A stretch of 64,000 bases of DNA from Ligustrum vulgare. Taxonomy: Eukaryota; Streptophyta; Magnoliopsida; Lamiales; Oleaceae. How positions within the stretch are numbered: position 1 is the stretch's first letter; each line of letters begins with the position of its first letter. Of the stretch, positions 26,877 to 60,281 are shown in pieces. The stretch is from the NCBI GenBank assembly GCA_963555705.1, contig OY743169.1:50334124-50398123 (forward strand), in the 5' to 3' direction. The translations under genes were made by a program, and so were the position numbers. The notes under the pieces are model-generated. The model searched no databases. It was not told the DNA's origin and saw only the letters and a program-made list of their open reading frames with translations.

Positions 26877-26878
26877 CT

Positions 26879-28566
26879 TGTTCGCTAAAATTGTATACCG
26901 CAAGTGTACGATTCGCGTTCAAGTAGTAAAGTGGACAGGAAAAGTCCAAGATATCGTACCCACGAGGATTGATTGATTTGTAGCTAAATTTGTTGATTTC
27001 ATTTTTAAAAGAAAGGTCAAGTAACATAAAATATTGGGTTTGTTGGCGAATCACTAACTAAATGACATAAGTAAAAAAAAAAAAAAACATTACAATAAGA
27101 AAACTAATTAACTAAAGCAAATAGATAATGATATATAAAATCTAGAATTAAAACTAATTAACCAAAGTAAACTAGTGACAATTAAAACTTGGTGATTAAA
27201 CTAAGTTACAAAACATGGATTAAGGTGGATTTAGTTTTCTTAACTACACTAAGTTCTTTTAAAAATCAATTAGTATTAGTTACTAACTAGACCAAATTAC
27301 ATGGGAAATTTTAAGTTTAGTCTAACAAGCATAATAACTTGCAAAGACATTACAAATTATTAACAACATTAGAAAATTACATAAACATAAAACAACATGC
27401 CTAATCATGAAAATATAAACATAAATACCCAATATCTATAAAAAACCTAAAATGCTTAAATAAAAATAAACTAGTCAAATATTTCTACACAATAACATTA
27501 ACCCATAATAAAAAGAAACAACATTTAACAAATAACATAAACATATCAACAATAATCTAAATAAAGATTAAAAAAAAGATAATAAAGGAAACTCCCATTT
27601 GTGTTAAGGTCTTAACGTGAAAATCCAAAATTCCTTCACTTTGAATCAAGTTTCTCCATCAGCCATTAATGTCTCCAACAACCCAAGCATAAAACATTAA
27701 ATGCGTTCAAGATATATGGAATTTATGGTAGAAATTTGAAAAAATACCAACAATCAAAAGCTTAAACAACAACAAGATAATGTAATGTGGAAAAAGATTA
27801 CTAAAACATTAAAATATTAATTGAAAATTGCATTAAAGAATGTAAGATTGAGAGAAAAATGCAGGGAAAAAAAGCATGAACTTACATAACCCTAGTTGAA
27901 AATCAGATTTTGGTATTTATATCCATCAAAAACAACCCAAAAATACCAAAGAACCGCGTAAAACAACATTTTGGACCGAATCAGGCCGATCAGGTTGACC
28001 CGGACCTGCCCAAAATAAATATAATTATTTTTTTTTAAAATCATTGCCGCACGATCGCGGGGCTGTGACACGAGCGATTGCGCGGTTCACTTTTTCGCGA
28101 GCAATTTCGGTTCTGCCTGGTTTCAAGCCACGACTCGCGTTCGTGTCTGGGTTTGAGCCACACGTTCGCGTGGCTTAGCTGGGGCGTGTTTTTCCAGCTT
28201 AGATCTTTTCGTAATTGCAATCTAGTCCTCCATCTTTCGGTGCCAATCAATTTAGTCCCCGAATTTTGCAATTTCTTTCAAATAGGTCCTTCTAAAATTG
28301 CACTTTTGGTCCTTCAACTTTTTGAATCTTGCAATTTGGTTCCTCAGTTAATTGCGCAGCTTGTCCACAACTTTTCGAAAGTGACAAAATGGTCCTAAAA
28401 CTTGGAATTTCAGCATAATTTGTACTCCTTTTGTGCTTTTTGGCCTCAAACTTGGATATTAACCTATTTAAACACATAATATGCATAAATTAGTAGATAT
28501 TTGTTGAAGATATTCCAAGATATGCCAATTTAAAGGCATAGCAATTGTATAAAAATGCACTTAACA
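26879..28566 (-). repeat. 5' LTR of Athila-like element
   Basis: 1688 bp, TGTTCG...TTAACA, followed by CTTAG as target duplication. It contains the conserved block TCGTACCCACGAGGATTG near 26955, also seen in related form in other gypsy LTRs in this window. Confidence 0.92.
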
Positions 28567-31969: not shown

Positions 31970-32934
31970 TGATGTGATCCGGAAAAGAAGCTAAGAAAAA
32001 TGTTATGATTCGGGACGAATCATCTTAAAGGAAGAGGGGATGATGTGATCCGGAAAAGGCGTCAAAAATGAGAAATCAAGATACGGGAAATTCAACAATA
32101 TTCTACATGGAAAAATGAACAAGTTTCGTGTTGGACTCGAGTCGAGATTCAAATCACGTCAACGGATCAGAAAATCAGAAAATTGGGCAGAAGATGTGTT
32201 ACGGCCGTAACATTGTTTCTCACGGCCGTAACTTATGGATTTCACGGCCGCATCACATTCCTCACGGCCGTAAATGAAAATTGGTATTTTTGTTCAGAAG
32301 GAGATTTACGGCCGTAACATCAATCTTCACGGCCGTAACTAATATGGTGACATTTTGATCAGAGAAGGACTTACGGCCGTAAGTCCGACTTTTACGGCCG
32401 TAAGCGGTGCAAATCAGATTTTTCGGAATTTTAGTATTTCAGTTGATTTGTATTTCCTTTATTGGTTTTTAATTCTTTTTCTAATTTTGGTAATTTTGGT
32501 AATTTTAGTTATTTTAGCTATTTTAGCCTAATTAGAATTCTATTAAGAGTCAGTTAGCGATTAGGGTTTATTTTGCCTATTTATATGCTTTTCCATTCAA
32601 TGTAAAAAAACAGAATATTTTTGATGAATAAAATTATATTGAGTGTTTTCTCAACATTGTTCTGGAATTGAACAAACTTCGAACTTATCAAATATTGTGG
32701 GATATTTGTGGTGTTCAACAAATTGAACTTATCAAGGATCTGGACATTCCTGGTGGCGTTCCCCCTTTGTGGTTCTTATGTCCGCATCGTAACGGGTTTT
32801 GGGTTTAATATACCCATAGTTCTTGCGTCGTGAGGTCGGGATTGCATTGTTATCGTCCTTTCCAACCTGGATTCGGAACTTTCCAAGCGTTATTCCGCGA
32901 GCTACGACGAGGACCCCCTCCCGGGTTCTCATCA
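31970..32934 (+). repeat. 5' LTR of the 3.8 kb element
   Basis: 965 bp. The first 71 bp are a duplication of the LTR start plus the preceding purine tract (TGATGTGATCCGG at 31970 and again at 32041), including the palindrome ATGATTCG-GGA-CGAATCAT. Confidence 0.92.
32201..32401. promoter_or_regulatory. Phased ACGGCCGT palindrome array (8 sites)
   Basis: ACGGCCGT starts at 32201, 32222, 32244 (ACGGCCGC), 32264, 32308, 32329, 32373 and 32394. Steps are 21, 22, 20, 44, 21, 44 and 21 bp. Sites are usually extended to TTACGGCCGTAA or TCACGGCCGTAA. Spacer bases are unrelated. A regulatory role is inferred from spacing only. Confidence 0.7.
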
Positions 32935-33560
32935 TATGGTATCAGAGCTGGACTCTGGATTCAGGTTCTTGTGTTATTCTATCCAGTTTGATTTTGTGTT
33001 TTTACCATAGAGTCTACACAAAATCATCCATATCTTGTTCTTCTTGCCAGTAAATTTTTTTCCAGTTTGATCCATAAGAGTCGCCCTAAAAAAATCAAAA
33101 GTGTTTTTCTTATTCGATTGTTTTCCAAATCCTGTCCCGTTTGTTTTGTTGCGTTCGTGTCGAATTTTCGGATTTTATTTAAAAAAAAAAATTTTATTAA
33201 TTCCGAAAATTCATCATAATTCAAAAAAAAAAAAAAAAAAAAAAAGTCACTCCGAAATTCAAGAACTACTTTCTTGAATTTCCTTTATTTCTTGATAATT
33301 CCTTGCCTTCCAAGTCAAATAAAAATTCTTGATATTCTTTCCTTTCTAATCAAAATTCAAGAACCACTTTCTTGAATTTCTACAATATTCTTGATATTCT
33401 TTCCTTTCGAGTCAAATTCAAGAACCACTTTCTTGAATTTCTTTAAAATTCTTGATATTGGTTTCCTTTTCGAGTCAACATTAAATTCCTTCTTGATATT
33501 TGTCAATATCTGGACCCTCTTATTTTGAGTCTCTCAAATTTTTAAAAGCTACATAAAGGG

Positions 33561-34895
33561 ATGAATTATGAGTTCGATCCTACCTTCCAGACTAGGTGTC
33601 ATGTGGGCAGTAAAGTGTGCAATATTATTATTGATAAGGAGTATTATTGCGATCTGGCCAGTACCACCATGGTTGAGGAGTTGGGCTTACCTTTACTACC
33701 ACATCCCAATCCTTATAGGCTGACGTGGTTAAAGGAGTGTGGGCAGGTAAATGTAACCCATGGGGTTATTGTGAAATTGGAACTTGGAAGATATAGCGAT
33801 GAGTTTTGGTGTGATGTAGTGCCTCTAGAATCGTGTGACATCTTGTTGAGTAGATCGTGGAAGCATGAGAGGAAAGCAGTCTATGATAAGCGCAGGAATA
33901 TATATAAATTTGTTAAGGATGGGAAAAGTATTAAGCTTATGCCGTTAACCCCGGAACAAATACTTGAAGAGAAAGTATCGCGAGAAAAGAGGGATGAGCA
34001 AAGAAAATTCAGAGATGATGAATGGAGTATGAAGGGTGAATTCATGGAGATGGCCAAGAAATTAATATAGTTAAATAAAGAGATGAAGGAACGAGAGGCT
34101 AGGAAAGAGTTAGCCGAGTTTCAAGAGAGAGAAAGGGGAAGAGAGGAGGTAGTTAAATTACAAGAAAAACCTTTGGAAATGATTGTTGAGAAGAAGGAGG
34201 AAGACTTGAGGAAAGAGTTAGAAGATAAAAATTTGTGTAGTGTTGAGGTGGTGCCTAATCATGTCAATAAAATTATTTATGAGGAGGTGCATGAGCAAAA
34301 GCATGAGAAATTAGGAGAGGTGGTAGAATCCATAAATTTAGAAGTGGAGGTTGAGTGTGCGAAAAAAGAATTAGAAGTAGTTGAAGAGACCCCGAATTTT
34401 GTGGTAGGAGATGAAAAGGTGGAGTTAGGTGATCAAACTCCAATATTTGATGAGGAAAAATTGGAAGTTGGGGATGAAGAATTAGAAGAGGTGGTAGAGT
34501 CCAAAAATTTGGAAGAGGAGGTTGTGCGTGAGAACGTGGAGCTAGAAGAATTGGTTGAGTTTGGGAGTAAAAAGATAGAAGATGTTGAGCAAGAAATTGC
34601 AAAGAAGGAAGGAGGTGAAGACCGGAATTTTGTTGTTGGGAAAAATGAATTGGAAATAATTCATCATGAATACAAGGATCCATACCTTGTATCTCATGAA
34701 ACTAACATTTCCCTCCCTATTTTATTTGATTCTTTTTTGCAGGTTGATTACACATGGAAGTCTGAGTCAAATTCACGTTGGAAAATTAACCTCGTGTTTC
34801 AATACATTCGTGTTCAACAATTGGAGGATTGTCGTCTATTAAATTCATGTCATGTAGTCCACAATTTTCCTTTTGATCCAGGAGGTACAGTTTGA
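33561..34895 (+). pseudogene. Retropepsin-like and glutamate-rich coiled-coil ORF
   Basis: One frame of about 444 codons interrupted by a single TAG at 34068-34070. Residues 1 to about 130 align with the protease region of the element at 48198 onward: FQTRCHVGSKVCNIIID, ASTTMVEELGLPLLPHPNPY, CDVVPLESCDILLSRSW. The catalytic D-G-G there is D-K-E here and ILLGRPW has become ILLSRSW, so peptidase activity is unlikely. From about residue 130 on it is charged and repetitive (EEVVESKNLEEEVV-like units), predicted to form coiled coils. It ends in a distinct FDPGG tail. Its role is unknown; the domain may have been kept as a structural protein. Confidence 0.75.
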
Positions 34896-35134
34896 TTTTT
34901 CAAGAACAACACCATGATTCGGGACGAATCATCCTAAAGAAGGAGGGAATGGTACGAATCAGGGTGGGCTTAACGGGAAAAACTATAATTCAAGCCAAAA
35001 CAAGAAGTCAACCAGGTTCGGAGAACGTCAAAGATCAAACATTGCTTGTACGAAGAAGGTTCGAGGCTTAACCAAGTGAGCAAGCCAAGAACAGTTTTAT
35101 GATTCGGGATGAATCATTTTAAAGGAAGAGGGGA

Positions 35135-35745
35135 TGATGTGATCCGGAAAAGAAGCCAAGAAAAATGTTATGATTCGGGACGAATCATCTTAAAGGAAGA
35201 GGGGATGATGTGATCCGGAAAAGGCGTCAAAAATGAGAAATCAAGATACGGGCAATTCAACAATATTCTACATGGAAAAATGAACAAGTTTCGTGTTGGA
35301 CTCGAGTCGAGATTCAAATCACGTCAACGGATCAGAAAATCAGAAAATTGGGCAGAAGATGCGTTACGGCCGTAACATTGTTTCTCACGACCGTAACTTA
35401 TGGATTTCACGGCCGCATCACATTCCTCACGGCCGTAAATGAAAATTGGTATTTTTGTTCAGAAGGAGATTTACGGCCGTAACATCAATCTTCACGGCCG
35501 TAACTAATATGGTGACATTTTGATCAGAGAAGGACTTACGGCCGTAAGTCCGACTTTTAAGGCCGTAAGCGGTGCAAATCAGATTTTTCGGGATTTTAGT
35601 ATTTCAGTTGATTTGTATTTCCTTTATTGGTTTTTAATTCTTTTTCTAATTTTGGTAATTTTGGTAATTTTGGTTATTTTAGTTATTTTAGCTATTTTAG
35701 CTATTCCGCGAGCTACGACGAGGACCCCCTCCCGGGTTCTCATCA
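35135..35745 (+). repeat. 3' LTR of the 3.8 kb element
   Basis: 611 bp. It matches the 5' LTR but lacks about 350 bp between TTTTAGCTATT and CCGCGAGCTACG, so it suffered an internal deletion after insertion. It retains the same eight-site array (35366-35566) with the same spacing. One site has become ACGACCGT and one AAGGCCGT. Confidence 0.9.
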
Positions 35746-43148: not shown

Positions 43149-43290
43149 TACATATCAAACTTTTCAAACTTTCACCTAACATTTCAAAACTTTCACTTCA
43201 TTTCCATCGTGAACTCACTTAGCGTATCTTCTAGCCAGTCAGAATGCAGTGGGCATATTTCCTTATTTAGAACAAGGTTATCACTTTTTC

Positions 43291-43585
43291 CACCGTATAG
43301 CGATTTAAGATTTTCCACCGCTAAGCGGTTTAGCAATCGTCACCGCAAAGCGGTTTAATATTTGCCACCGTCAAGCGATTTTGCAATCGTCACCGCAAAG
43401 CGGTTTAATATTTGTCACCATCAAGTGGTTTAGCAATCGTTACCGCAAAGCGGTTTAATATTTTTCACCTCCAAGCGGTTTAGCAATCGTCACCGCAAAG
43501 CGGTTTAATATTTGCCACCGTCAAGCGGTTTAGCAATCGTCACCGCGAAGCGGTTTAATATTCACCACCGCAACAGCGGTTTAAT
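43291..43585. repeat. 25 bp hairpin minisatellite, 12 units in 50 bp pairs
   Basis: CACCG opens monomers exactly 25 bp apart from 43291 to 43566. Alternate monomers are more alike, giving a 50 bp higher-order unit (GCAATCGT at 43333, 43383, 43433, 43483, 43533). Each monomer has a small inverted repeat, ACCGC-AAA-GCGGT or a variant. Confidence 0.95.
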
Positions 43586-45589: not shown

Positions 45590-45907
45590 CATAGTCCTAG
45601 GTGATTCTTGGTTTTCACTTGGCTTTTGCGGCATATATTCTAAGGTTTATGACCTCGTTTGTAATATGATATTGGTTATCTGGAGGTGTCATTGCCCCCT
45701 TTTGTGGTGTACTAATAACATTTTCTCCTAGTAATGTAATTTTTGTAGACTTGGTGCGCCTTTTTGTTAGATTGTGACTCTGTATTCTAGACTTTCAAAG
45801 TTGTAGTATCTCAGAGAGTGATAAGTGCTTTATTAGCATGTATTTAATTCACTTATTATCTTATTTTGCTATTGGTTTGATCCTATTGATGTATCGTTTA
45901 ATGCACT

Positions 45908-46788
45908 TGATGTGATCCAGACCACGGATACAAACCCGCACAAAGATCCGTTGAAGATCAAAGGAGGACCGATGACTCGATTGCAAACAAAGAGGGCCAA
46001 CGAAGCAATGGACAAGCTAGTTCAAGGAACAATGGCCAAAACAATGTTCGTGTCATTAAAAGAAGCAAGTTCCATGTTGGGACCGAGCCAAAACGACGAG
46101 TGGATCAACCTCATTCAAGCCGTCGAAGAAAATTGTGAAATTTCAAGAATTACGGCCGTAACATATGGAGCTCACGGCCGTAACCAACCTACTGTTGAAA
46201 ACTGTGATTTTGAAGAAAATTGGACTTACGGCCGTAACGCAGATTTGTCACGACCGTAACGCAGCCTCGGATCAAAAACAAGATTTTCAGAAAATATAAA
46301 TTACGGCCGTAAATATTTATCTCACGGCCGTAACTATTAAACAGAAACAAGGTTACGGCCATAAGGGAGTTAGTCACGGTCGTAAAATCCTATACGCGTG
46401 AATTTTAGGGTTTATTTATTTCCTTATTTTTAGGTAGTTGTTTCCTTATTTAATTAGAACTCTTAACCTAGATTTTGACCCTATTTATAGGGATGTAATT
46501 TTCATTATTAGATACACAAATTTGATATTATAATTGAGAGGCTATTTTGCTTTCATATTCTTATTCTTCATTGAATAAAATCCGAACTTGCGAGTTAATC
46601 TTGTTTGTTCAAATCTTGGGTGAGATTTACTTTTATTGTGATCAAGAGGTCAGCATATATATTGATTGTGTTAGTTGCTTGGTTCAATTAATTTGAATCA
46701 ATCTCTAAATCGTGGTTCTTTGGCGTTCTTGGGTCGATTCCAATAATTTGTGGGTTGCGTAGCTACAATTGCTACGTGGTTTGCATCA
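45908..46788 (+). repeat. 5' LTR of CRM-like element
   Basis: 881 bp. Includes the ACGGCCGT array 46152-46383. Because the LTR also encodes the C-terminal tail of the polyprotein, 45912-46259 is open here too. Confidence 0.95.
46152..46383. promoter_or_regulatory. Phased ACGGCCGT array in CRM-like 5' LTR (8 sites)
   Basis: Sites start at 46152, 46174, 46228, 46250 (ACGACCGT), 46303, 46324, 46355 (ACGGCCAT) and 46376 (ACGGTCGT). Steps are 22, 54, 22, 53, 21, 31 and 21 bp, near 2, 5, 2, 5, 2, 3 and 2 helical turns. The identical steps in the 3' LTR are 51810, 51832, 51886, 51908, 51961, 51982, 52013, 52034. Confidence 0.7.
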
Positions 46789-47366
46789 TCTGGTATCAGA
46801 GCTTAGGCTCCAAAAATCAAGGTTATATCTTTGTTTTGTTTTCTTGAGTCTTCTTTAATCTTGTTCTTCGTGTTCTTCCAGTTCTTGAGTCTTTAATCAA
46901 AAAAAAAAAAGTGTCACAAAAATTCAATAGTCGTTATTTCCTTCGTTTGTTATCCAAATTAAATTTCGTTTGTTTCATTAGTCTCGTAGTTGAATTTTCG
47001 AGAAATTGAAAAAAAAAAACGAAAATTCTCAGTCCAATTACAATAGCAGTTATTTGATTTCAAAAAAATATATATTCTTGACTCAATCCTAGTTTCCATA
47101 AAAGTGTCAAGTTCTATATAGAGTCAAATTCCATTCTCTAAAGGTCTTCTTCAAGTTTTCTGAACAGTTCATAGAATTCTCACTCTTACTCGATTTGAAT
47201 CATTCGGGCTTAAACTTGTTTGAGTTCGGGTTCGTTCTTTGAAGCAATTGGGGTGAAAGCCATTGAGTGGAAAAAGGCAGAGAGGTGAGATCAATAGAGG
47301 ATAAAAACCAAATTTGAGTGATACACGAGCGAAATACACGTGAGGCATATAATATTTAGTTTTAGA

Positions 47367-48182
47367 ATGTCTGCACAATCTTCTACTACAAAAAACAATG
47401 ATCGAGCCAACATGACGGAAGAGATGGTACAACGGTTTGAGCGGTTGTTTGGGGATGTGTTAGGTAGATTAGACATGCTTGAGCAACCTCGGGAAGTGCC
47501 TAATGCCCGTAGGCAAGGTGGGCAAGGTCGTAGAGTAGAGGGGATCGACGAGAATGAAGAAGGTAGTGATTTTGACGATGGGGCAATTGTGGATAGAATA
47601 GTTAGGCATGGAAGAAGGGATAGAGATCTTGGTGGCGATAGGATGGATGGTAGTATGAGCAACATCAAAATGACAATTCCGTCATTCAAGGGTAGGAGTG
47701 ATCCGGAAGCATACCTAGAATGGAAAAAGAAGATGGAATTAATTTTCAATTGCTACACTTATTCGGAAGAGAAAAAGGGAACAGAAAGGTATCAATATGG
47801 TTCTAATTCTTCTTGGAAGCCGAAGTGGGATAGTAAAGGAGATGGGACTGTTTCTAAAGGGAAGTTTGAAGCACCAAAAGGGAAATTTGAGGCACCAAAA
47901 GGGAAGGAGGAACAAGCTAATAAACTCGTACCTAAAGGGGAACCTCAACCATCTAGGAGTAGAGACATTCAATGCTTCAAATGTTTGGGGAGAGGACATG
48001 TGGCATCTCAATGTCCTAATAGGCGAGTGATACTTGTGCGAAAGGATGGAGCCATGGAGAGTGATAGTGAGGAAGAGGATTATAGCGATATGCCGGCATT
48101 GGAGGAAATATGTGATGATGAGGATGTGTTATCCGGGGAGCATGGCGAGTTATTAGTGGCAAGGAGAGCTCTTAGTGCTTAA
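47367..48182 (+). pseudogene. Gag of CRM-like element with internal deletion
   Basis: Starts at ATG 47367 (MSAQSSTTKNN). It has the N-terminal charged part, the entry of the gag domain (IPSFKGRSDPEAYLEWKKKM, LIFNCYTYSEE) and then jumps directly to the basic linker before the zinc knuckle (IQCFKCLGRGHVASQCP, CCHC intact). The main capsid segment of roughly 150 residues expected between them is missing without a frame change. KGKFEAP is repeated in tandem. The frame ends at TAA 48180-48182 but pol continues in the same frame, so this stop looks like a mutation within a single gag-pol frame. Confidence 0.85.
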
Positions 48183-48197
48183 ATCAACACGGATGAT

Positions 48198-51100
48198 TTG
48201 GAACAACAACGGGAGAACATATTCCATACACGATGTCGCATTAATAACAAGGTATTTAGTATGATTATTGATGGTGGTAGTTGCACTAACGTCGCTAGTA
48301 CTATATTTGTTGAAAAATTAGGATTACCTTTGTTAAAACATCCTAAACCTTATAGGCTTCAATGGTTAAATGATAGTGGAGAAATTAAGGTGAATAGGAG
48401 GGTGTTGGTGAGATTTTCTATTGGTAGCTATGTGGATGATGTTATGTGTGATGTGGTTCCTATGCATGCCGGACACATTTTGTTGGGTAGGCCTTGGCAA
48501 TATGATAGGAAGGTAACGCATGATGGGTATAAAAATAGGTATAGCTTTACCAAAGGGGGAAAAACCATTACACTTGCACCATTGACACCGTCACAAGTGT
48601 ATGAAGATCAAATAAAATTGAAAAATGATGAAGAGAAAAGAGTGAAGGAAAATGAGAGAAAGAGAGTTGAGGCCACGACCTCAGCAAAAGGAGAGGAAAA
48701 GAGAGTTGGAGCCACGACTCCAGAAAAAGGAGAGGCGAGAGAAAAAAGGAGTGTTGGGGTACATACCTCAGAAAAAGGAGAGGGAGCGAAGAGTGCCAGA
48801 AAAGAAAGAAAAATGAGTTTCTACGCAAAAAGGAGTGAAATCAAGAAAGCATTCATGGAAGAACGGCCAATGGTCCTTCTGCTATACAAGGAATCATTCC
48901 TTGCATTTGATGAAACTAACAAATCCCTCCCTAGTTTGGCTATTTCTCTCTTGCAGGAATTTGACTATATATTTCTCGATGACATACCTAGTGGGTTACC
49001 ACCCATTCGAGGTATTGAACATCAAATTGATTTTGTACCTGGAGCAGTCATTCCGAACCGCCCCGCTTATCGAAGTAACCCCGAGGAGACAAAGGAGCTC
49101 CAAAGGCAAGTGGAGGACTTGATGAGCAAATGGTATATAAGGGAAAGTATGAGTCCATGTGCCGTCCCCGTGTTACTTGTGCCCAAAAAGGACGGGACTT
49201 GGAGAATGTGTGTCGATTGTAGGGCCATCAACAACATAACGGTAAAGTATCGTCATCCTATTCCTAGGTTAAATGATATGTTGGATGAATTGCATGGCTC
49301 TAGCATATTTAGTAAAATTGAACTTAAGAGTGGTTATCATCAAATTCGAATGAAAGAAGGAGATGAGTGGAAAACTGCTTTTAAAACTAAGTATGGCCTG
49401 TATGAATGGTTAGGAATGCCTTTTGGACTTACTAATGCACCTAGCACATTTATGCGTTTAATGAATCATGTTTTACGTGCATTTATAGGTAAATTCGTTG
49501 TAGTTTACTTCGATGATATCTTGATATATAGTAAAACTTTGAATGAGCATGTGGAGCATGTTAGGTGTGTGCTTGTGGTTTTAAGACAAGAGCAACTTTT
49601 TGCTAATTTTAAAAAGTGTGATTTTTGCATGGAAAAAGTTGTGTTTCTTGGCTATGTGGTTAGTGCTAAAGGAATAGAAGTAGATGAAGAAAAAGTCAAA
49701 GCTATTAAAGAATGGCCAACACCTAAAAGCATAACTGAGATTAGGAGTTTTCATGGCTTGGCTAGTTTTTATAGGCGCTTTGTTAAAAATTTTAGCACGA
49801 TTTCCGCACCACTCACAGAAATTGTCAAAAAAAGTGTAGGTTTTAAATGGGGAGTAGAACAGGAACATGCATTTGAAACAATCAAAAATATGTTGTGTAA
49901 AGCATCGGTTTTATCACTTCCTAACTTTGACAAGGCTTTTGAGATTGAATGTGATGCCTCAGGGCTAGGCATTGGAGCTGTTTTAATGCAGGATCAAAGG
50001 CCAATCACCTATTTTAGTGAAAAACTAAAAGGGGCTGCACTTAATTACCCCACATATGACAAGGAGTTATACTCACTTGTGCGCGCTTTGGAGACATGGC
50101 AACATTACTTGTGGCCACGGGAGTTCGTGATACACACTGATCATGAATCCTTGAAGCATTTGAGGGGTCAAGCTAAGCTGAGTAAGAGACATGCAAGGTG
50201 GGTAGAATTCATCGAAACATTTCCCTATGTCATCCGATACAAACAAGGTAAGGAAAATGTGGTGGCAGATGCATTGTCTCGAAGGTATGTTCTTTTAAAT
50301 TCTTTAAATTCTAAATTACTTGGATTTGAATACATTAAGGACATGTATGCTAGTGATCTGGACTTTTCTAATATTTATGAATTATGTGGTAAAGGGGCTG
50401 TGGATAGGTTCTTTAAACATGATGATTATTTATTTCGAGAAAATAAATTGTGTGTCCCTAGATGTTCAATGAGGGAGTTACTTGTGAGAGAGGCCCATAG
50501 TGGAGGTTTAATGGGTCATTTTGGGGTTAAAAAGACCATTAAAATCCTAAGTGAACATTTCTATTGGCCTAAGATGAAGATTGATGTTGTTCGGGTTTGT
50601 AATAGATGCATTACTTGTAAGAAGGCTAAATCTAGGATTAAACCCCATGGATTATATATGCCTTTACCTGTACCTAGTGAACCTTGGGTCGATATCTCTA
50701 TGGATTTTGTTTTGGGACTACCGAGGACTAAGAAGGGAAGAGATTCAATTTTTGTGGTAGTAGATCGCTTTAGTAAAATGGCACATTTCATACCATGCCA
50801 CAAAAGTGATGATGCAACTAACATAGCTGAAATTTTCTTTCGGTAAGTCGTACGCTTACATGGGGTTCCTAAAAGTATTGTCTCGGATAGGGATGTTAAA
50901 TTTCTTAGTCATTTTTGGAGGGTCTTGTGGAACAAATTAGGTACAAAACTACTTTTCTCTACAACTTGTCACCCACAGACCGATGGACAAACCGAGGTAG
51001 TAAATAGGACAATGATTCAATTGTTGCGCACGATAATCAATAAAAATCTGAAAAATTGGGAAGAGTGTTTACCATTTATTGAATTTGCATATAATAGGGC

Positions 51101-51917
51101 TATACATTCTACTACTTCTTATTCACCATTTGAAATTGTTTATGGTTTTAATCCGCTAACACCATTGGATTTAATTCCTTTACCTGTGAATGAACGTAGT
51201 GGCTTAGATGGAAAGAAAAATGCTGAAATGGTTAAATCACTCCACGACAAGGTGAGGTTGGCGATTGAAAAGAAAAATGAACATTATGCTTCGCAGGCTA
51301 ACAAAGGAAGAAAAGGCGTCATATTTGAACCCGGTGATTGGGTTTGGGTACATTTGAGAAAGGAGCGGTTTCCAGAACAACGCAAGTCAAAGTTACAACC
51401 GCGAGGAGATGGTCCATTCCAAGTGATCGAAAGGATCAACAACAATGCCTATAAACTCGATCTTCCTGGTGAGTATAATGTTTCGGCTTCATTTAATGTT
51501 TCTGATCTATCTCCGTTTGATGTAGGTACAGATTCGAGGTCGAATCCTTTCGAAAAGGGAGGGGATGATGTGATCCAGACCACGGATACAAACCCGCACA
51601 AAGATCCGTTGAAGATCAAAGGAGGACCGATGACTCGATTGCAAACAAAGAGGGCCAACGAAGCAACGGACAAGCTAGTTCAAGGAACAATGGCCAAAAC
51701 AATGTTCGTGTCATCAAAAGAAGCAAGTTCCATGTTGAGACCGAGCCAAAACGACGAGTGGATCAACCTCATTCAAGCCGTCGAAGAAAATTGTGAAATT
51801 TCAAGAATTACAGCCGTAACATATGGAGCTCACGGCCATAACCAACCGACTGTTGAAAACTGTGATTTTGAAGAAAATTGGACTTACGGCCGTAACGCAG
51901 ATTTGTCACGTCCGTAA
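48198..51917 (+). pseudogene. Pol of CRM-like element: protease, RT, RNase H, integrase
   Basis: Continuous frame, numbered from 48198. Protease with catalytic [12 protein letters not shown] (about residue 23) and ILLGRPW (about 94). A charged linker with repeats ([23 protein letters not shown]). RT with [20 protein letters not shown] and intact YFDDILIYS (about 437). RNase H with [13 protein letters not shown] (about 582) and [11 protein letters not shown]. Integrase with zinc-finger H-x-H...C-x2-C (about 768-810) and core [14 protein letters not shown] at 50844-50846 interrupts the integrase core; downstream (50847-51917) the same frame carries [15 protein letters not shown] and continues past 51566 into the 3' LTR ([11 protein letters not shown]). 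No chromodomain is evident. All other catalytic residues that can be checked are present. Confidence 0.92.
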
Positions 51918-52446
51918 CGCAGCCTCGGATCAAAAACAAGATTTTTAGAAAATATAAATTACGGCCGTAAATATTTATCTCACGACCGTAACTGTTAAAC
52001 AGAAACAAGGTTACGGCCGTAAGGGAGTTTGTCACGGCCGTAAAATCCTATACGCGTGAATTTTAGGGTTTATTTATTTCCTTATTTTTAGGTAGTTGTT
52101 TCCTTGTTTAATTAGAACTCTTAACCTAGATTTTGACCATATTTATAGGGATGTAATTTTCATTATTAGATACACAACTTTGATATTATAATTGAGAGGC
52201 TATTTTTCTTTCATATTCTTATTCTTCATTGAATAAAATCCGAACTTGCGAGTTAATCTTGTTTGTTCAAATCTTGGGTGAGATTTACTTTTATTGTGAT
52301 CAAGAGGTCAGCATATCTATTGATTGTGTTGGTTGCTTGGTTCAATCAATTTGAATCAATCTCTAAATCCTGGTTCTTTGGAGTTCTTGGGTCGATTCCA
52401 ATAATTTGTGGGTTGCGTAGCTACAATTGCTACGTGGTTTGCATCA
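51566..52446 (+). repeat. 3' LTR of CRM-like element
   Basis: 881 bp, few differences from 45908-46788. Among the eight array sites six differ between the two LTRs, a marked concentration. Followed by TSD GCACT. Confidence 0.95.
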
Positions 52447-52854
52447 GCACTTTTACTTATTGTGCTATGTAAGGTCAAAAAAAAGAAAATAAAGGAAACA
52501 AGACCAAAGAAATACAAAAAAATCAAGAAGTGAGGTTCAAGGGCATATTCAAAGAGCTCCAAATCAATAATGGCATGTGGGAAGAAGATTAGATGCAAAA
52601 ATTATGGTCAAAGAAGGTTTGGGATGAAGTTAGAAATCAAAAACCCGCAAGGATTGTGATCATGAATTTTAGTCATAGATTGAAGCTCAATTTGGTCATA
52701 GAAAATTTTCGAATTTGAGAAGATCTATTTCACAAATAATTTTATATATTTAAGTTTTCTTTCCAACGCAACTTGAATCACCACAATCGGACTTCGGGAG
52801 AGAAAATTATGACCAAAACATCGAGCACAGGCGCTTCTCGGCAGAGATGAACTT

Positions 52855-52948
52855 ACGGCCGTAAATGACATAGTTACGACCGTAACATCCAAATTCCGAA
52901 AATTTTCAGTAGCTCACTTACGGCCGTGATAAGGAAAGTTACGGCCGT
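52855..52948. promoter_or_regulatory. Phased ACGGCCGT array in Athila-like 5' LTR (4 sites)
   Basis: Sites start at 52855, 52876 (ACGACCGT), 52920 and 52941; steps 21, 44, 21. The 3' LTR has the same positions (59155, 59176, 59220, 59241), with the first two sites decayed to ACTGCCTT and ACGGATGT. Confidence 0.7.
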
Positions 52949-53983
52949 AACTTGCTTTCCAAGAAATTTCCTTATCTAGTTCAAGGTCTATCTTTGGTAT
53001 ATTTTGTGGGTAAAGTTAGAGCACGATTATTGGAGTATTAAATGAGCAAAATCACCACAAAAGGAGGCTGGACATTGAGGAAAATTGAGAGCAAAACATA
53101 GAGCATTCTTGGGAGATTTTCAAGCACAAGAATATCAACAACAATGGAATTCATGAAGCAACTTGAAGAATCTACCACAACCATGCTAGGCTAAATTCCA
53201 TATCTTGTTCAAAGGGGAAGTTGTGTTAGCTTGATTATGTTATTTTCTTTTCCTACAAATTAGTAGCGCCAATTTATTCCTTTATTTCAATTGTTGGATT
53301 ATTATGTTTTGAATGTTCAATTGAGTTTATTTGATTAATAGTTTAATTTGGCCAATTGGATTATTGATCTTTGGATTCATGAATATGCTATGTTTAGATT
53401 CTTGATCCGTAATTGTCATTGAATCGTTACTTTAGTAGCAAATAAATCTCGTCCAGGTTTAGTTATAATTCAATTTGGATTGATTAATTCGAGCTTGTGA
53501 AATTAACGATCTAATTCAATCTATTCTTCTAAATTTTCATACTAGTCGTACATTAAATCTTAAGAGCTTGTTTAGGATTGTTCGTGGCTAGAATTGGTTT
53601 GAATAGCTTGTTTTGAATCAATACACATAAGGAAGAATTTAGATAATCAGAACTTGTTGATTATTTATGATTGATAATTGAATTAGGGATAGAAACACGT
53701 TACAAGGAAAAGTATAACATTAATCAAGGGCACAACCGAACCCGAGAACAAGATTTCTTCTCATATTATTTCTCTAGTCATATTTAATTGTTTATTTTTA
53801 TGCATATTTTTTATTCAAGTAATTTCAAACAACAAACCCACATGCCATTCTAATTGATCGAACAACTAAAATTAGTTTCCGTTTCTCGTGGGATCGACCC
53901 TTACTCTCACTACTACATTATTAATTAATATTTAGCGAGTAAGAAATTATTTATTATTTTGGTGCATTGCGACACGCATCAAA

Positions 53984-54005
53984 TTTTTGGCGTCGTTGTT
54001 GGGGA
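53984..54005 (+). other. Primer-binding site of Athila-like gag-protease element
   Basis: TTTTTGGCGTCGTTGTTGGG directly after the 5' LTR. It matches the family form TTTGGCGCCGTTGCCGGGG with C-to-T changes. Confidence 0.8.
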
Positions 54006-54146
54006 ACGGTCAACCAATTTAGTTGTTTAGTTAATTATAATTTTATTTTTTTCTGCATTTTATTTTATTAATTTTATTTTCACTTTATTTCTATAATTTT
54101 TCAAAATAAAATAAAATAAAATAAAATTTCTTGCATTTCTACTTCT

Positions 54147-55779
54147 TTGCTTATATGCGTAAAACTCGATCAACTAATTTTGAATTTTTTTGATTTTGAC
54201 CCAGAAATCGAGAGAACTTTTCAACAGCAAAGAAGAGCTGTACAACCAATGGCAGTAGCTAACAGTAATCTGACTCTCAAGCAACTTGCTACCCCGATGT
54301 TGCTCAACAACCGCTATGCATCACTTTTCCGACTGTGGAAGAAGGCAGAACTTTTGAGCTAAATTCCGGACTGATCCATCTTTTGCCAACTTTTAGAGGA
54401 CATCCCGGTGAGGACCCTTACAGACATCTGAAGGAGTTCCATGTCATTTGTGATAACATGAGACCCACGGGTATTACTGAGGAACAAATCAAGATGAGGG
54501 CATTTCCATTCTCGCTGAAGGATGCTGCTACTGACTGGTTATACTGTCTACCATCTGGATCAGTCACCACCTGGAACGACATGAAGAGGCTATTCCTAGA
54601 AAAGTACTTTCCTGCATCGAGAGCTGGAACGATCAGAAAGGAAATATGTGGGGTGCGCCAAAACAATGGTGAATCATTATATGAGTATTGAGAGCGCTTC
54701 AAAAAGCTCATCTCGAGCTGCCCCCATCATCAGATCAGTGAGCAACTCTTGGTGCAATATTTTTATGAAGGTCTGGCACCGATGGATAGAAGCATGATAG
54801 ATGCCGCAAGCGGAGGTGCATTAATGGACAGGACACCGGAACAAGCACGGGCTTTAATCTCCAATATGGCTGAGAACACTCAGCAGTTCAACTCCAATAG
54901 GGATATGCAAGTTCGACGCGTGAATGAGGTAAGTAGTTCCAATATTGAAAGTCAATTGTTTGAATTAACAAATCTCGTTAAACAACTTGCTGTAGGGAAG
55001 GCACAACAGGTCAAAGCTTGTGGGATACGTGCAAACTTCGGACATCCAACAGATACTTGTCCGGTGTTGCAAGAGGGAAATGGTGAACAAGTAAGTGCTG
55101 CAGAGGGTTTTCCGTTCCAAAGACAACAGTACAATCCGTACTCCAATACCTACAATCCAGGATGGAGGGATCACCCCAACCTAAGCTACGGAATTAACAA
55201 GCCCCCAGGTTTCATTTCAAACAAACCTCAAGGGCAATTTCAGCAACAAGGAACCTTCCAACAACATGGCCAGTATCAGCAAAAACCTCAAGACTCAAGT
55301 ATGTCTCTTGAAGACATGGTAAAGCAACTAACACATTACAATTTCAACAGGATGCAAAGTCTAGCATTCAAAATTTGGAGAACCAGATGAGCCAAATGGC
55401 CACCGCCATCAACAGGTTGGAAGCACAATTCGGAGAGAAACTACCATCTCAGCCTAAGGTAAATCCAAATAATGTGAGTGCAATTACTCTCCGAGGTGGA
55501 AAAGGGCTTGAAGAACCACAACTGAAACCTACCCCAATCAAAGAGAAGGAAATTGAGGGAAGGGAAGTCGGGAAGAACGACAGCACCTCAAAAAGCTCGC
55601 AAGTAAAAAAGGATTCCACTTTAAATATTAAATTGACTCCACCTCCTTTTCCTAGCAGGCTAGCAAAGGCGAACAAGGAAAGCAAGGAGAAAGAAATCCT
55701 GGAGTTGTTCGGGAAAGTGGAAGTCAACAGTCCACTGTTGATGCAATCAAGTAAGTACCCCGATACGCAAGGTTTTTGA
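54147..55779 (+). pseudogene. Athila-type gag
   Basis: Frames in order: 54147-54362 (N-terminal part), a frameshift, then 54335-54691 with LPTFRGHPGEDPYRHLKEFH and FPFSLKDAATDWLYCLPSG (the gag-domain A-x-x-WL core). A TGA at 54689-54691 falls where relatives have Trp, and the same frame resumes (ERFKKLISSCPHH, then 54749-55390). A zinc knuckle is reduced to CGIRANFGHPTDTCP. After another frameshift 55375-55779 gives the coiled region and PPPFPSRLAKANKESKEKE. Non-functional as it stands. Confidence 0.88.
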
Positions 55780-56450
55780 AGGAGCTGTGCACCAACAAAC
55801 GGAAATTGAAGGAGAATGAGAAGGTGATGATGGGAGAAAATGTGTCTGCATTATTTCAAAGGAAATTACCTCCAAAATGCAAGGATACTGGTATGTTTAG
55901 AATCCCTTGTATAATAGGTGAAACTAAATTTGAGAAGGCCTTGATAGATTTGGGAGCGTCAATTAATGTAATGCCTAGGTCCACATATGCTTCTTTAAAA
56001 CTGGCCAATTTAACTGAAACGAATGTCATAATTCAATTGACTGATCGCTCTAACGCCTATCCGGATGGGGTAGTTGAGGATGTGCTAGTGCAAGTAGGAG
56101 GGTTAGTGTTCCCGGCTGACTTTTATGTGTTAGACATGAATAATGATCACTCTCCCAACTCCACTCCTATTTTGTTAGGTAGACCATTTCTAAAGACATC
56201 TAAGACCAAGATAGATGTCAGTAGTGGCACACTCACCATGGAATTTGATGGTGAAATTATTCAGTTTAATATTTATGATCCCATGAACTACCTTGATGAT
56301 GATAATCCTGTTCATTCTGTTAATGTAATTGATTCTTCAGTACAAGAAACTTTCAAACTTGGTGGAAATGGTGAAAAGCCAGGTAAAATCTCGTGTATTA
56401 CATTGCCAACTTCTGATGACATGCTTTTGCCCCTGTCTTGCAGGCCCTAA
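55776..56450 (+). pseudogene. Athila-type retropepsin domain
   Basis: A 224-residue frame overlapping gag by a few bases in another frame. It contains ALIDLGASINVMP, the active site in the D-L-G form usual for Athila elements, and PILLGRPFLKTSKTKIDV, the second motif. The frame ends about where relatives begin the RT linker. No RT follows, so the element lacks the replication enzymes. It is open throughout, but the upstream gag frameshifts make expression unlikely. Confidence 0.85.
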
Positions 56451-56549
56451 TGAAAAATATGAAAAAGAAGTTGAGCTTTGGAAATCCACCTAATCCCAGT
56501 TGAAGGAGGAAACAACAAGTCTAGCTAAAGACAGTAGACAAAGGCGCTG

Positions 56550-56567
56550 CTCGGGAGGCAACCCGAG
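56550..56567 (+). other. Covarying hairpin with AGGCAA loop
   Basis: CTCGGG-AGGCAA-CCCGAG, a perfect 6 bp stem. The Athila-like element at 17.9-28.6 kb has TTGGG-AGGCAA-CCCAA in the same relative place (21351-21366, minus strand). The loop is identical and one stem pair differs with pairing kept. Confidence 0.8.
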
Positions 56568-56680
56568 AGGGGAGTTTCTTTACTCCCTCAAATTGTTATT
56601 TTTTTATTTTCATTTTTGTCATTTTTCTTATTAATTAATTTCATTCAAAAAAAGAAAGAAAAAAATTCAGTGGCCTTGTT

Positions 56681-56839
56681 ACGGCCGTAAGTTAAAACTT
56701 TACGGCCGTAACTCTACTCCATCGAATTTATCAAGAGGCCTAATTACGGCCGTAACTATATTGTTTACGGCCGTAGTTAATTCTTTTTAAATTTTTTCAG
56801 ATTGTCACTTACGGCCGTAATTAATATCTTCACAGCCGT
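56681..56839. promoter_or_regulatory. Phased ACGGCCGT array, most regular copy (6 sites)
   Basis: Sites start at 56681, 56702, 56746, 56767, 56811 and 56832 (ACAGCCGT). Steps are exactly 21, 44, 21, 44, 21, a 65 bp period of paired palindromes. Spacers are AT-rich and unlike each other. It lies outside the LTRs, downstream of protease. Confidence 0.75.
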
Positions 56840-56919
56840 AAGTTTCGCAAACTTTTAAAACTACATCTCTTCTTCTGATTCCATTCACATTCCCCTATTT
56901 TGTTTTGTATTGTCATGCT

Positions 56920-56966
56920 CCACATTCAGGACAATGTGGAATTCAAGTGTGGGGGGGGGGGGGAAT
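56920..56966 (+). other. Internal polypurine-tract-like site with hairpin
   Basis: Hairpin CCACATT-CAGGAC-AATGTGG (56920-56939), then GAATTCAAGTGT and a run of 13 G (56951-56963). The terminal purine tract of the same element reads TTTAAGTGTGTGGGGATT, so this is a second similar tract 1.7 kb upstream. The other Athila-like element has the same pair (21092-21109 and adjoining purines, minus strand). Confidence 0.7.
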
Positions 56967-58662
56967 GATTATCTATTATCTTTTGTTATCCCTGTTTTAT
57001 TTATCTTCATTCAGTTTTTTGTTAGTTAGCTTTAATTGTGCTTAGACCCACATTTGGTTTAATAGGAAGCAGCCCCACTTATGATAATTTTTGAACTACC
57101 AACTTCTTAAATTGCATAATCAGACAAAGAACGAGCACATAGAGATGAGTCATAAAGATGAGTTTTCCAATAATTTCTGAATTAGTTTGAAAATGGGGAC
57201 AAATTGAAAATTTTCTGCTACCTAATTGAGTCAAACCAAAACTGATATGATAAAATACCACCCCGAGTAACTTCATTCTATCCTTATCCACTAGATTTTG
57301 AGTTCGGAACCAAGACTGAGCAATGACCTATAACTCATAATTGGATGGGAGGAACACATATAATCCATAATTTGTGAGCTTTTAAGCCTATGAGCTACTT
57401 TTACTCTTTATATTAAGCTCTATTTTTTATGTGTGTCCTGTATGGTTGGTTTGTGCTTGGATGTGATTTCTTGTGCATACCGTTGTAGCTTCTGACTCAA
57501 GTGCAAAATATAGTAGAGGCATTAGGTGAAACTAAATTTGACCTGCTAAAAGGGCCTACCATGATACATGTACCAATAGAAGCCCTTTTGAGCCTTAGCC
57601 TTTCTTTGAATTTTTTATGCCACGCTACAAGACACGAATACCCTTTCTTTCACATTGTCTATGTTTTGAACCCATAGAGAAGGGATTTGCAAGCTTTTGT
57701 TGATTTAGGATCGTGCTGTGGTCTAAGTCTAAGAAGTTGCAATGGTTATCTTGTGTTGGGTGACGGTTGTGTAATGGACTGAATTCAGGGGAATGTAATT
57801 CTATCTTGTGTCAATTGGTGACTGCGTAATGATTTGAACAAAAGAGAAAAAGTTGCAGTCTATACTCGAAAAAAAAATCGAAAGAGAAAAAGCAATAAAA
57901 AGGAAGTTTAGTCAAGAAAATTAGTAGTTGAGGAAGTCAAACACTCAACTTGTAAAAAAAAAAAATTCAAGTGTGAACAAAGTTGGGTAGAGTGAAACAA
58001 TGAAGTTCGTATTGAGAGTGAAGGAAGTAATGTCATTGTGAATTGACTTGGTTTGCGAAATTCCTTCTCGACTAGGCCTAAATATGTCATTTTATCCTAC
58101 CTGACCTGAGGCCCCGTTACAACCAAATAAAGACCTTTACTTTGCACTTGTGTTATTGTTAGCTCCGGTTATGACATTTGAGCAGTCTGTGGTAATAGAT
58201 TCTCCATGCAGTGAGTTGAGTGAAAAATCTCACCCTTATACACTTTGTGCGAAGAGAGAAATATCTATTGAGGGTGTGAACTCCCATTACATATGCTTAT
58301 GAGTGGTTTGAATTGGTTGGTCTATATTTTGTGCTTTCAAGTTGGCCAAAAACTAACACCCATGTAGTAAATCATTGATAGAGGTTAAAAGAGAACTCAC
58401 GAGAGGTGGGAGGATACAAGCCACATTGGGAAATGAATTGGACCGGGGGTATTGATTTTCATTTCTGTTCAGAGGATATTGGATAATGCATCTCTTGCAC
58501 ACACTAACACACTCCGGTTATGCAATTGAATTTTCATGCTAAAAGAGAAGTGGGCTGTAACCTTGACTTTCCGATTGTAGGTCTATCTTTTTGTTTGAGT
58601 TATGTTTCTTTTCTTTCACATCATTATTCGAGGACGAACAATGGTTTAAGTGTGTGGGGATT

Positions 58663-60281
58663 TGATAAGTTCTTTATTAGCACGTATTTAATTCACTTAT
58701 TATCTTATTTTTTTATTGGTTTGATCCTATTGAAGTATCGTTTAATGCACTTTCACTTATTGTGCTATGTAAGGTCAAAAAGAAGAAAAGAAAGGAAACA
58801 GGATCAAAGAAATACAAAAAAATCAAGAAGTGAGGTTCAAGAGCATATTCAAAGAGCTCCAAATAAATAATGGCATGTGGGAAGAAGATTAGATGCAAAA
58901 ATTATGGTCAAAGAAGGTTTGGGATGAAGTTGGAAATCAAAAACTTGCAAGGATTGTGATCATGAATTTTAGTCATAGATTGAAGCTCAATTTGGTCATA
59001 GAAAAATTTCGAATTTGAGAAGATCTATTTCACAAATAATTGTATATATTTGAGTTTTTTTTCCAATGCAACTCGAATCACCACAATCGGATTTTGAGAG
59101 AGAAAGTTATGACCAAAACATCGAGTACGGGCGCTTCTCGGCAGAGATGCACTTACTGCCTTAAATGACATAGTTACGGATGTAACTTCCAAATTCCGAA
59201 AATTTTCAGTAGCTCACTTACGGCCGTGATAAGGAAAGTTACGGCCGTAACTTGCTTTCCAAGAAATTTCCTTATCTAGTTCAAGGTCTATCTTTGGTAT
59301 ATCTTGTGGGTAAAGTTAGGGCACGATTATGGGAGTATTAAATGAGAAAAATCACCACAAAAGGAGGCTGGACATTGAGGAAAATTGAGAGCAAAATATA
59401 GAGCATTATTGGGAGATTTTCAAGCACAAGAATATCAACAACAATGGAATTCATGAAGCAACTTGAAGAATCTACCACAACCATGTTAGGCTAAATTCCA
59501 TATCTTGTTCAAATGGGAAGTTGTATTAACTTGATTATGTTATTTTCTTTTCCTACAAATTAGTAGCGTGAATTTATTCCTTTATTTCAATTGTTGGATT
59601 ATTATGTTTTGAATGTTCAATTGAGTTTATTTGATTAATAATTTAATTTGGCCAATTGGATTATTGATCTTTGGATTCATGAATATGCTATGTTTAGATT
59701 CTTGATCCGTAATTGCCATTGAATCTTTACTTTAGTAGCAAATAAATCTCGTGCAGGTTTAGTAATAATTCAACTTGGATTGATTAATTCGAGCTTGTGA
59801 AATTAACGATCTAATTCAATATATTCTTCTAAATTTTCATACTAGTCATGCATTAAATCTTAAGAGCTTGTTTAGGATTTTCCGTGGTTAGAATTGGTTC
59901 GAATAGCTTGTTTTGAATCAATATACATAAGGAAGAATTTAGATAATCAGAGCTTGTTGATTATTTATGATTGATAATTGAATTAGGGATAGAAACACGT
60001 TACAAGGAAAAGTATAACATTAATCAAGGGCACAACCGAACCCGAGAACAAGATTTCTTCTCATATTATTTCTCTAGTCATATTTAATTGTTTATTTTTA
60101 TGCATATTTTTTATTCAAACAATTTCAAACAAAAAACCCCCATGCCATTCTAATTGATCGAACAACTAAAATTAATTTTCGTTCCTCGTGGGATCGACCC
60201 TTACTCTCGCTACTACATTATTAATTAATATTTAGCGAGTAAGGAATTATTTATTATTTTGGTGCATTGCCACACGCATCA
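58663..60281 (+). repeat. 3' LTR of Athila-like gag-protease element
   Basis: 1619 bp, TGATAAGT...ACGCATCA, uninterrupted. It includes array sites 59155-59248 and the conserved GTGGGATCGACCCTTACTCTC-like block near 60188. Confidence 0.95.

What the first reader, a model, noticed from the sequence alone, without database searches (positions are those of the whole stretch)
56681..56839. Helically phased array of paired ACGGCCGT palindromes with a 65 bp period
Six palindromes start at 56681, 56702, 56746, 56767, 56811 and 56832: steps 21, 44, 21, 44, 21. The 8-12 bp site (TTACGGCCGTAA) is conserved while the spacers are not. 21 bp is two helical turns and 44 about four, so all sites face one side of the DNA. 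The pattern looks like an operator array for a dimeric or tetrameric DNA-binding protein. Alternatives: RNA stem-loops formed by pairing the two palindromes of a pair, or a link to 21-nt small-RNA phasing. It lies in non-coding DNA downstream of protease in a gag-protease element. I know of no described retroelement module of this form.
Basis: partly seen in the sequence, partly recalled or inferred. Interest (0 to 1): 0.9.

Follow-up and report, generated by a model that had tools for sequence, protein, structure and literature searches.

The report
Shared palindrome arrays in plant retrotransposons
Three different retrotransposons in this apparently plant DNA carry the same 12-letter palindrome in pairs spaced about 21 letters apart, in their end repeats and once inside an element; the pairs are likely docking sites for a host DNA-binding protein that would help switch the elements on, and they resemble an array already described in another retrotransposon group.

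Summary
The array is real (five exact ACGGCCGT cores, a sixth with one mismatch; steps 21/44/21/44/21), but it is one of four. TTACGGCCGTAA-like sites occur 45 times in the window (at most 2 mismatches), 44 of them in three Ty3/gypsy-type LTR elements: E1 (LTRs), E2 (LTRs, gag-pol) and E3 (LTRs plus the internal array of the finding). Outside the sites, the LTRs of the three show no significant similarity. Spacers are near random in sequence, yet the within-pair distance stays 20-22 bp while pair-to-pair distance varies from 22 to 54. A CAG starts 11 bp upstream of the first site in 8 of 12 units. In E1 and E2 the array lies upstream of a TATA-like box. An Athila-like relative of E3 in the same window lacks sites. 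None of 39 site changes is compensated in a stem, which speaks against RNA. The architecture closely matches the palindromic 'RM boxes' of Sirevirus (Ty1/copia) LTRs (Bousios 2010). I read it as a cis-regulatory operator array: a new variant of a known kind, in Ty3/gypsy-type elements, with one palindrome shared across families. Genome-wide spacing could not be tested: the genome search did not complete.

The parts
56679..56841 (+). E3 internal array (the finding): six 12-bp sites at 56679, 56700, 56744, 56765, 56809, 56830
52853..52950 (+). E3 5' LTR array: sites at 52853, 52874, 52918, 52939 (steps 21, 44, 21)
59153..59250 (+). E3 3' LTR array: 59153 and 59174 decayed (2 mismatches each), 59218, 59239
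46150..46385 (+). E2 5' LTR array: eight sites, steps 22, 54, 22, 53, 21, 31, 21
51808..52043 (+). E2 3' LTR array: eight sites; the first four lie in the end of the integrase ORF (stop codon 51915-51917)
32199..32403 (+). E1 5' LTR array: eight sites (32242 degenerate, 3 mismatches), steps 21, 22, 20, 44, 21, 44, 21
35364..35568 (+). E1 3' LTR array: eight sites (35407 degenerate, 3 mismatches)
45819..60281 (+). E3, gag-protease LTR element; 5' LTR 45819-45907 and 52447-53981 (split by E2), 3' LTR 58663-60281; gag domain in 54335-54691, protease 55776-56450; no pol domain found
   Evidence: boundaries read from the sequence
45908..52446 (+). E2, Ty3/gypsy-type gag-pol element inserted in the 5' LTR of E3; LTRs 45908-46788 and 51566-52446 (97.5% identical); target duplication GCACT
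31970..35745 (+). E1, short element with an E2-like protease (33561-34070) and no RT recognised; 3' LTR has lost about 350 bp; target duplication ACCTC
46482..46489 (+). TATTTATA, TATA-like box of the E2 LTR, 97 bp downstream of the array
32578..32585 (+). TATTTATA, TATA-like box of the E1 5' LTR, 175 bp downstream of the array
56557..56564 (+). GGCAACCC landmark upstream of the E3 internal array; also in Athila-like E4 (- strand, 21353), where no array follows

Best explanation
The array is one of four copies of a palindrome module, paired TTACGGCCGTAA-type sites 20-22 bp apart, carried by three different Ty3/gypsy-type LTR elements, and it is likely a cis-regulatory operator on which a host protein would bind each palindrome as a dimer, two dimers side by side, to activate transcription. 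Shown: the sites, their spacing, their presence in the LTRs of E1, E2 and E3 and in the interior of E3, the lack of other significant LTR similarity, the TATA-like sequence downstream in E1 and E2, the CAG 11 bp upstream in 8 of 12 units. Inferred: that a protein binds, that it is a host protein, that pairs are bound cooperatively on one DNA face, that the effect is activation, and that the internal E3 array works as a second enhancer or promoter at the place where Athila-type elements pass from pol to the 3' region. The sites are probably under selection in the replicating lineages; single inserted copies lose them.
For: 44 of 45 sites (at most 2 mismatches) lie in E1 (14), E2 (16) and E3 (14), 1 elsewhere at 15004. 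33 of 34 CGGCCG in the window lie in these arrays. With sites masked, the best BLAST hit between the LTRs of E1, E2 and E3 has E 0.023. Within-pair step 20-22 in 13 of 13 pairs of the four arrays; pair-to-pair step 22 to 54. Between arrays (53 unit pairs) mean site identity is 97% (site 1) and 89% (site 2), against 28% for spacers and 27% for random 20-mers. CAG at -11 in 8 of 12 units; in random placements the best of any trinucleotide over 22 offsets reached 6 in 2 of 5000 and never more. In E1 and E2 the array begins 229 and 242 bp into the LTR and ends 175 and 97 bp before TATTTATA. CpG observed/expected is 1.5-1.9 in the arrays against 0.63 for the window. A similar architecture is in print for Sireviruses. 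ONSEN shows that a host factor can drive a plant LTR through its own sites (passages).
Against: No factor is identified; no motif database of plant factors was at hand. The phasing of distinct pair-to-pair distances is not significant (4 values, p 0.058). All four arrays have the same orientation relative to their element, and the module is directional (CAG upstream; TC variant mainly in the second site), which a symmetric operator does not need. Site changes are not compensated within a dyad either (0 of 39). Between LTR copies, sites differ more than the rest: 13 of 240 positions against 82 of 2725 (sum of E1, E2, E3), so single copies are not conserved. Downstream of the E3 LTR array only a weak TATAT at 52998 was found, and after the internal array none of four exact TATA-type motifs scanned. 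The CAG is at -11 in only 1 of 4 E2 units. E1 and E2 share an ancestor (protease 44%; LTRs also share their first 11 bases), so they are not independent. CpG o/e is also raised in the rest of the E1, E2 and E3 LTRs (1.12, 0.96, 0.79).
Confidence: 0.55

Rival explanations
1. The pairs act as RNA: each pair folds into a 12-bp stem with a loop of about 9 nt in the element's transcript and serves as a source or target of small RNAs, or as an RNA signal.
For: All arrays would lie in the genomic RNA (U3 at its 3' end, or internal; inference). Strong predicted folding: z -9.4 for E3 internal, -5.8 for E1, -4.6 for E2, though any palindrome pair gives this, and in E1 and E2 the predicted fold joins largely sites of different units. 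Same orientation in all four arrays. A paper on palindromic structures in maize Sirevirus LTRs and the host epigenetic response exists (title seen in a reference list; paper not held).
Against: 39 changes from the consensus over 23 units (both LTR copies included, so some are counted twice; 17 of them are T>C at position 2): 0 compensated, 34 broken stem pairs, 4 G-U. The TC variant of site 2 faces an unchanged A in site 1 in the E1, E2 and E3 pairs that carry it. The tight 20-22 bp spacing is not needed for a hairpin.
Confidence: 0.2
2. A protein encoded by a transposon, not the host, binds the array to counter silencing, as VANC proteins do on VANDAL elements.
For: VANC21 targets are short motifs in dense same-orientation arrays in non-coding parts (passages). 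Retand elements carry antisense ORFs predicted to bind DNA and, in about half, tandem repeats between pol and the 3' LTR (passages).
Against: No candidate ORF seen: in 56450-58700 the longest antisense open frame is 82 aa (those frames were not run against family models, except 58520-58870, which gave none). The E1 and E2 ORFs scanned gave retroelement domains or nothing. A target shared by three families does not fit a family-specific protein. A spliced gene or one elsewhere in the genome is not excluded.
Confidence: 0.1
3. No function: an old tandem-duplicated module spread between elements by template switching or nested insertion and is decaying.
For: E1c and E1d share flanking sequence, and spacers inside E3's internal array are somewhat more alike than random (44% against 27%). 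Sites mutate faster than the rest after insertion. Template switching in a U3 repeat is on record for Tnt1 (passages).
Against: Spacers are near random while sites and pair spacing are kept, which neutral decay of CpG-rich sites would not leave.
Confidence: 0.1
4. The self-complementary sites help genomic RNAs of different elements pair with each other and be co-packaged, which would let E1 and E3, without recognised pol, ride on E2.
For: Same palindrome in a pol-bearing element and in two elements without recognised pol.
Against: Predicted folds satisfy the sites within one RNA; no precedent was looked for here.
Confidence: 0.04

Closest known systems
Sirevirus (Ty1/copia) RM boxes, Bousios et al. 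2010, PMC2829016 (abstract, sections 9, 10 and 19, and passages seen)
   Same: Palindromic repeats, 12 of 13 with a CGG-CCG core, at least 8 and up to 32 copies, in the LTR upstream of a TATA box, extra interior cluster upstream of env, high site identity in diverged flanks, CpG-rich, function untested
   Different: Here the elements are Ty3/gypsy-type; the core is CGGCCG without intervening bases; one palindrome is shared by three elements; sites come as pairs 20-22 bp apart. I saw no such spacing rule in the sections read.
VANC target arrays of VANDAL elements (PMC5735166, passages)
   Same: Dense arrays of a short motif in non-coding parts of a mobile element, evolving by tandem repeat formation
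   Different: The VANC21 motif YAGTATTAY is not a palindrome and belongs to one DNA transposon family with its own binding protein; none seen here
[quoted passage not shown]
   Same: Repeats between the coding region and the 3' LTR of a non-chromovirus Ty3/gypsy element
   Different: Those are family-specific repeats with antisense ORFs; here a short dyad shared with LTRs, and no antisense open frame over 82 aa
Heat-responsive element of ONSEN (PMC3907296, passages) and Tnt1 BII repeats (PMC2923131, passages)
   Same: Host-factor site (ONSEN) or repeats (Tnt1) in the promoter part of a plant LTR
   Different: Other elements and sequences; [quoted passage not shown]

Membership tests
Sirevirus RM box | Palindrome with CGG-CCG core | tested here: met
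   TTACGGCCGTAA, 20 exact copies
Sirevirus RM box | At least eight copies per element | tested here: met
   E1 and E2 eight per LTR (one degenerate in E1), E3 four per LTR plus six internal
Sirevirus RM box | Cluster 200-400 bp into the LTR, upstream of a TATA box | tested here: inconclusive
   Met in E1 (229 bp) and E2 (242 bp) with TATTTATA downstream; the E3 array starts 490 bp into the LTR (59153 minus 58663) and has only a weak TATAT
Sirevirus RM box | Clusters coincide with CpG islands | tested here: inconclusive
   CpG o/e 1.5-1.9 but GC 39-46%; no formal island call made
Sirevirus RM box | Extra internal copies upstream of env | tested here: inconclusive
   E3 has an internal cluster after the protease, but no env gene was recognised
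Sirevirus RM box | Host element is a Sirevirus (Ty1/copia) | tested here: not met
   E2 has protease, RT, RNase H, then integrase H2C2 and SH3_Tf2-1, the Ty3 order; E3 has Retrotrans_gag and aspartyl protease. E1 by its protease only
VANC anti-silencing system | Element-encoded sequence-specific protein | tested here: inconclusive
   No candidate among open frames of the E3 3' region or the ORFs scanned; spliced genes not excluded
Retand lineage | Antisense ORF, mostly with TRP28, between pol and 3' LTR | tested here: not met
   Longest antisense open frame 82 aa in 56450-58700; TRP28 model not run on it
Host-factor operator | A protein binds the pair | not testable with these tools
   No binding data or plant motif library held

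The most novel reading that the evidence does not exclude
One host DNA-binding protein with a dimer-of-dimers footprint (two ACGGCCGT dyads two helical turns apart) controls a cross-family set of Ty3/gypsy elements: autonomous E2-like elements, their pol-less relatives, and Athila-like gag-protease elements all captured the same operator, so that carriers and parasites are switched on together. Together with Sirevirus RM boxes this would make CGG-CCG dyad arrays a general, convergent control module of plant LTR retrotransposons.
Probability: 0.35. Interest if true: 0.78.

Novelty: new variant of a known kind. Interest (0 to 1): 0.52.

Why it matters
Palindromic, mostly CGG-CCG arrays were reported as a feature peculiar to Sireviruses among the Ty1/copia elements compared. 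Finding the same architecture, with one identical palindrome, in Ty3/gypsy-type elements of two kinds suggests that unrelated plant retrotransposons converge on, or exchange, one control module. That makes it testable which host factor reads it, and whether pol-less elements use it to be expressed together with the elements that supply their enzymes.

Tried and rejected
RNA stem by covariation: no compensation in 39 changes. Rfam: no match at gathering thresholds in the window. Relatives in public DNA: the pair pattern with the full 12-mers has 0 matches in viral contigs and 0 in genome contigs; the looser core pair gave 48 viral stretches, none with the 12-mer pair and 43 of 48 above 50% GC, taken as unrelated; protein-led scans of viral contigs found no relative. 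Proteins as a proxy: none of 120 listed integrase relatives has a palindrome-encoded tail (120 of 3202 hits were listed). I recalled that cotton repeats contain CACACGGCCGTGTG arrays and built a 103-aa query from that memory; 387 candidates, none at E 1 or better, and a paper search for ACACGGCCGTGT gave 6 papers, 4 listed, none on plants by title, so this lead stays untested.

Papers: the 12-mer occurs in one unrelated paper; ACGGCCGT with 'retrotransposon' in one paper that I did not open. Searches are the ten searches behind my statement that I found no description of this module in Ty3/gypsy elements; several list only 20 of more than 20 papers, and the library holds open-licence papers only.

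A first version of the statistics script failed and was rerun corrected. One paper query had a term too short and was rerun without it. The E3 LTR offsets printed (500, 1630) used a boundary a few bases off; from the intact 3' LTR the array starts at 490 and the LTR is 1619 bp.

In the unit statistics I used 12 of 13 pairs of the four arrays (the degenerate E1 pair at 32242/32262 was dropped) and one LTR copy per element; one search used 23 units including it and both copies.

Full report
WHAT IS THERE. The six sites of the finding are at the stated places. Five have the exact core ACGGCCGT and the sixth one mismatch. The window holds 31 exact ACGGCCGT against 0.07 expected, and none of 100 shuffles reached 31 (largest 1). 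All 31 lie in three LTR elements, and 33 of 34 CGGCCG do too. With two mismatches allowed in TTACGGCCGTAA there are 45 sites: 14 in E1, 16 in E2, 14 in E3, 1 elsewhere.

THE ELEMENTS. The window is AT-rich (35% GC), and the listed protein relatives that bear an organism name are from plants, so I take it as plant DNA; the species is unknown. E3 is the gag-protease element of the finding: a gag domain and an aspartyl protease domain, no RT found. Its LTRs begin with TGATAAGT at 45819 and 58663 and end at CATCA at 53981 and 60281; the part compared is 95.7% identical. E2, a Ty3/gypsy-type gag-pol element, sits inside the 5' LTR of E3 with a GCACT target duplication; its LTRs are 97.5% identical. 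E1, at 31970-35745, has an ACCTC duplication, a protease 44% identical to that of E2 and no RT recognised. E1 and E2 are thus related. The E3 protease is only marginally similar to that of E2 (28% over 65 residues, E 0.006) and resembles that of an element on the minus strand here called E4 (37% over 122 residues). 'Athila-like' for E3 and E4 is my label from memory of such elements, not a tool result.

FOUR ARRAYS. E1 LTR: steps 21, 22, 20, 44, 21, 44, 21. E2 LTR: 22, 54, 22, 53, 21, 31, 21. E3 LTR: 21, 44, 21. E3 internal: 21, 44, 21, 44, 21. Pairs are 20-22 bp apart in 13 of 13 cases while the distance between pairs runs from 22 to 54. With the sites masked, the LTRs of the three elements match at best at E 0.023, and E1 against the E3 internal region at 0.014; unmasked, the comparisons reach E 6e-8 to 3e-3 through the sites. 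Across arrays, sites are on average 97% (first) and 89% (second) identical, spacers 28%, random 27%. So what is kept is the dyad and the pair distance. Site 2 reads TCACGG in most E1 and all E2 pairs.

A SECOND CONSERVED MARK. Aligning 12 units on the first site shows CAG at -11 to -9 in 8 of 12 (E1 3 of 3, E2 1 of 4, E3 LTR 2 of 2, E3 internal 2 of 3) and A at -10 in 12 of 12. Over all trinucleotides and 22 offsets, random anchors in the same regions reached 6 in 2 of 5000 trials and never 8. The units of one array are not independent, so this comparison is optimistic. The mark lies about one helical turn upstream of the palindrome; what it does is unknown.

POSITION. In E1 and E2 the arrays start 229 and 242 bp into the LTR and end 175 and 97 bp before TATTTATA, so they occupy the U3 enhancer position (that this is the TATA box is inferred from sequence). 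In E3 the LTR array starts at 490 (59153 minus 58663), with only a weak TATAT after it. In E2 the first four sites of the 3' copy lie in the end of the integrase ORF. In E3 the internal array lies between two landmarks, GGCAACCC (56557) and AAGTGTGGGGG (56945). E4 has matching landmarks (21353; 21227 and 21085, minus strand) and an AT-rich interval without such a palindrome, and no site anywhere. The array is therefore an addition in E3 or a loss in E4, not a fixed feature of the kind.

DNA OR RNA. The RNA of the three arrays folded is predicted to fold far better than shuffles, which any palindrome pair would. The better test is compensation: of 39 changes in 23 units none is compensated by the partner site, 34 pairs of the would-be stem are broken, 4 are G-U. 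None is compensated within its own dyad either, as expected if most are decay after insertion. Tight spacing with free spacer sequence is expected of proteins on DNA, not of hairpin loops. On the other side, all arrays share one orientation relative to the element, and the module is directional.

SELECTION LEVEL. Between the two LTRs of each element, site positions differ at 2 of 96 (E1), 6 of 96 (E2) and 5 of 48 (E3), against 5 of 451, 16 of 785 and 61 of 1489 elsewhere. Eight of the 13 site changes are transitions. CpG-rich sites in silenced copies are expected to decay by methylation (inference). Yet sites are near perfect across units whose spacers are near random, so the constraint probably acted on the active lineage before insertion.

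PHASING. At 10.5 bp per turn all 22 steps give R 0.86, and 13 that I picked as roughly independent R 0.84 (0 of 5000 uniform draws as high in either case), but the four distinct pair-to-pair steps alone give p 0.058. The 21-bp pair is two turns; strict phasing between pairs is not established.

WHAT IS KNOWN. Bousios et al. 2010 (PMC2829016; abstract, sections 9, 10 and 19 and passages seen) describe 'RM boxes' in 13 Sireviruses: palindromes, 12 of 13 with a CGG-CCG core, 8 to 32 copies, in the LTR upstream of a TATA box and, in env-bearing elements, in a second cluster mostly upstream of env; in most elements the clusters mark CpG islands; identity is commonly over 85% in diverged flanks, and function is untested. 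They call them Sirevirus-specific in comparison with other Ty1/copia elements. The present arrays match in core, copy number, LTR position (E1, E2), second internal cluster (E3) and CpG enrichment, and differ in host lineage, in sharing one palindrome among three elements, and in pair spacing. A later paper links palindromes of maize Sirevirus LTRs to the host epigenetic response; I saw only its title. Retand tandem repeats (PMC11963269, passages), VANC targets (PMC5735166, passages), ONSEN (PMC3907296, passages) and Tnt1 (PMC2923131, passages) are looser parallels.

VERDICT. An operator array for a host protein is the most likely reading (0.55). It is a new variant of a known kind, not a unique module.

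Noticed in passing
43286-43584: Another array of inverted repeats of the type ACCGC-AA-GCGGT, period 25 (unit 50 bp, 5.8 copies), with the opposite CCG-CGG order; element not identified.
   Followed up: partly
17867-28566 (- strand): Athila-like element E4 with 1.7-kb repeats 90% identical, an RT domain, GGCAACCC and AAGTTTGGGGG landmarks, and no palindrome site; used as a negative control.
   Followed up: yes
45908-52446 within 45819-60281: E2 is nested in the 5' LTR of E3, about 400 bp from that LTR's own array; each array is also in the element's other LTR, so both should predate the nesting.
   Followed up: yes
35082-35745: The 3' LTR of E1 lacks about 350 bp that its 5' LTR has (with the TATA-like box), and a 71-bp tandem repeat spans the LTR start.
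   Followed up: partly
L023 and L036 (one IMG/VR contig, possibly overlapping), also L047, L005: Viral contigs with 48, 49, 31 and 20 ACGGCCGT sites in 7-14 kb, above the other 44 loci; probably another repeat or dyad, unrelated to the plant array.
   Followed up: no
51566-51917: The E2 integrase ORF runs 116 codons into the 3' LTR and ends inside the palindrome array, so four sites are also codons, the last ending in the stop.
   Followed up: partly
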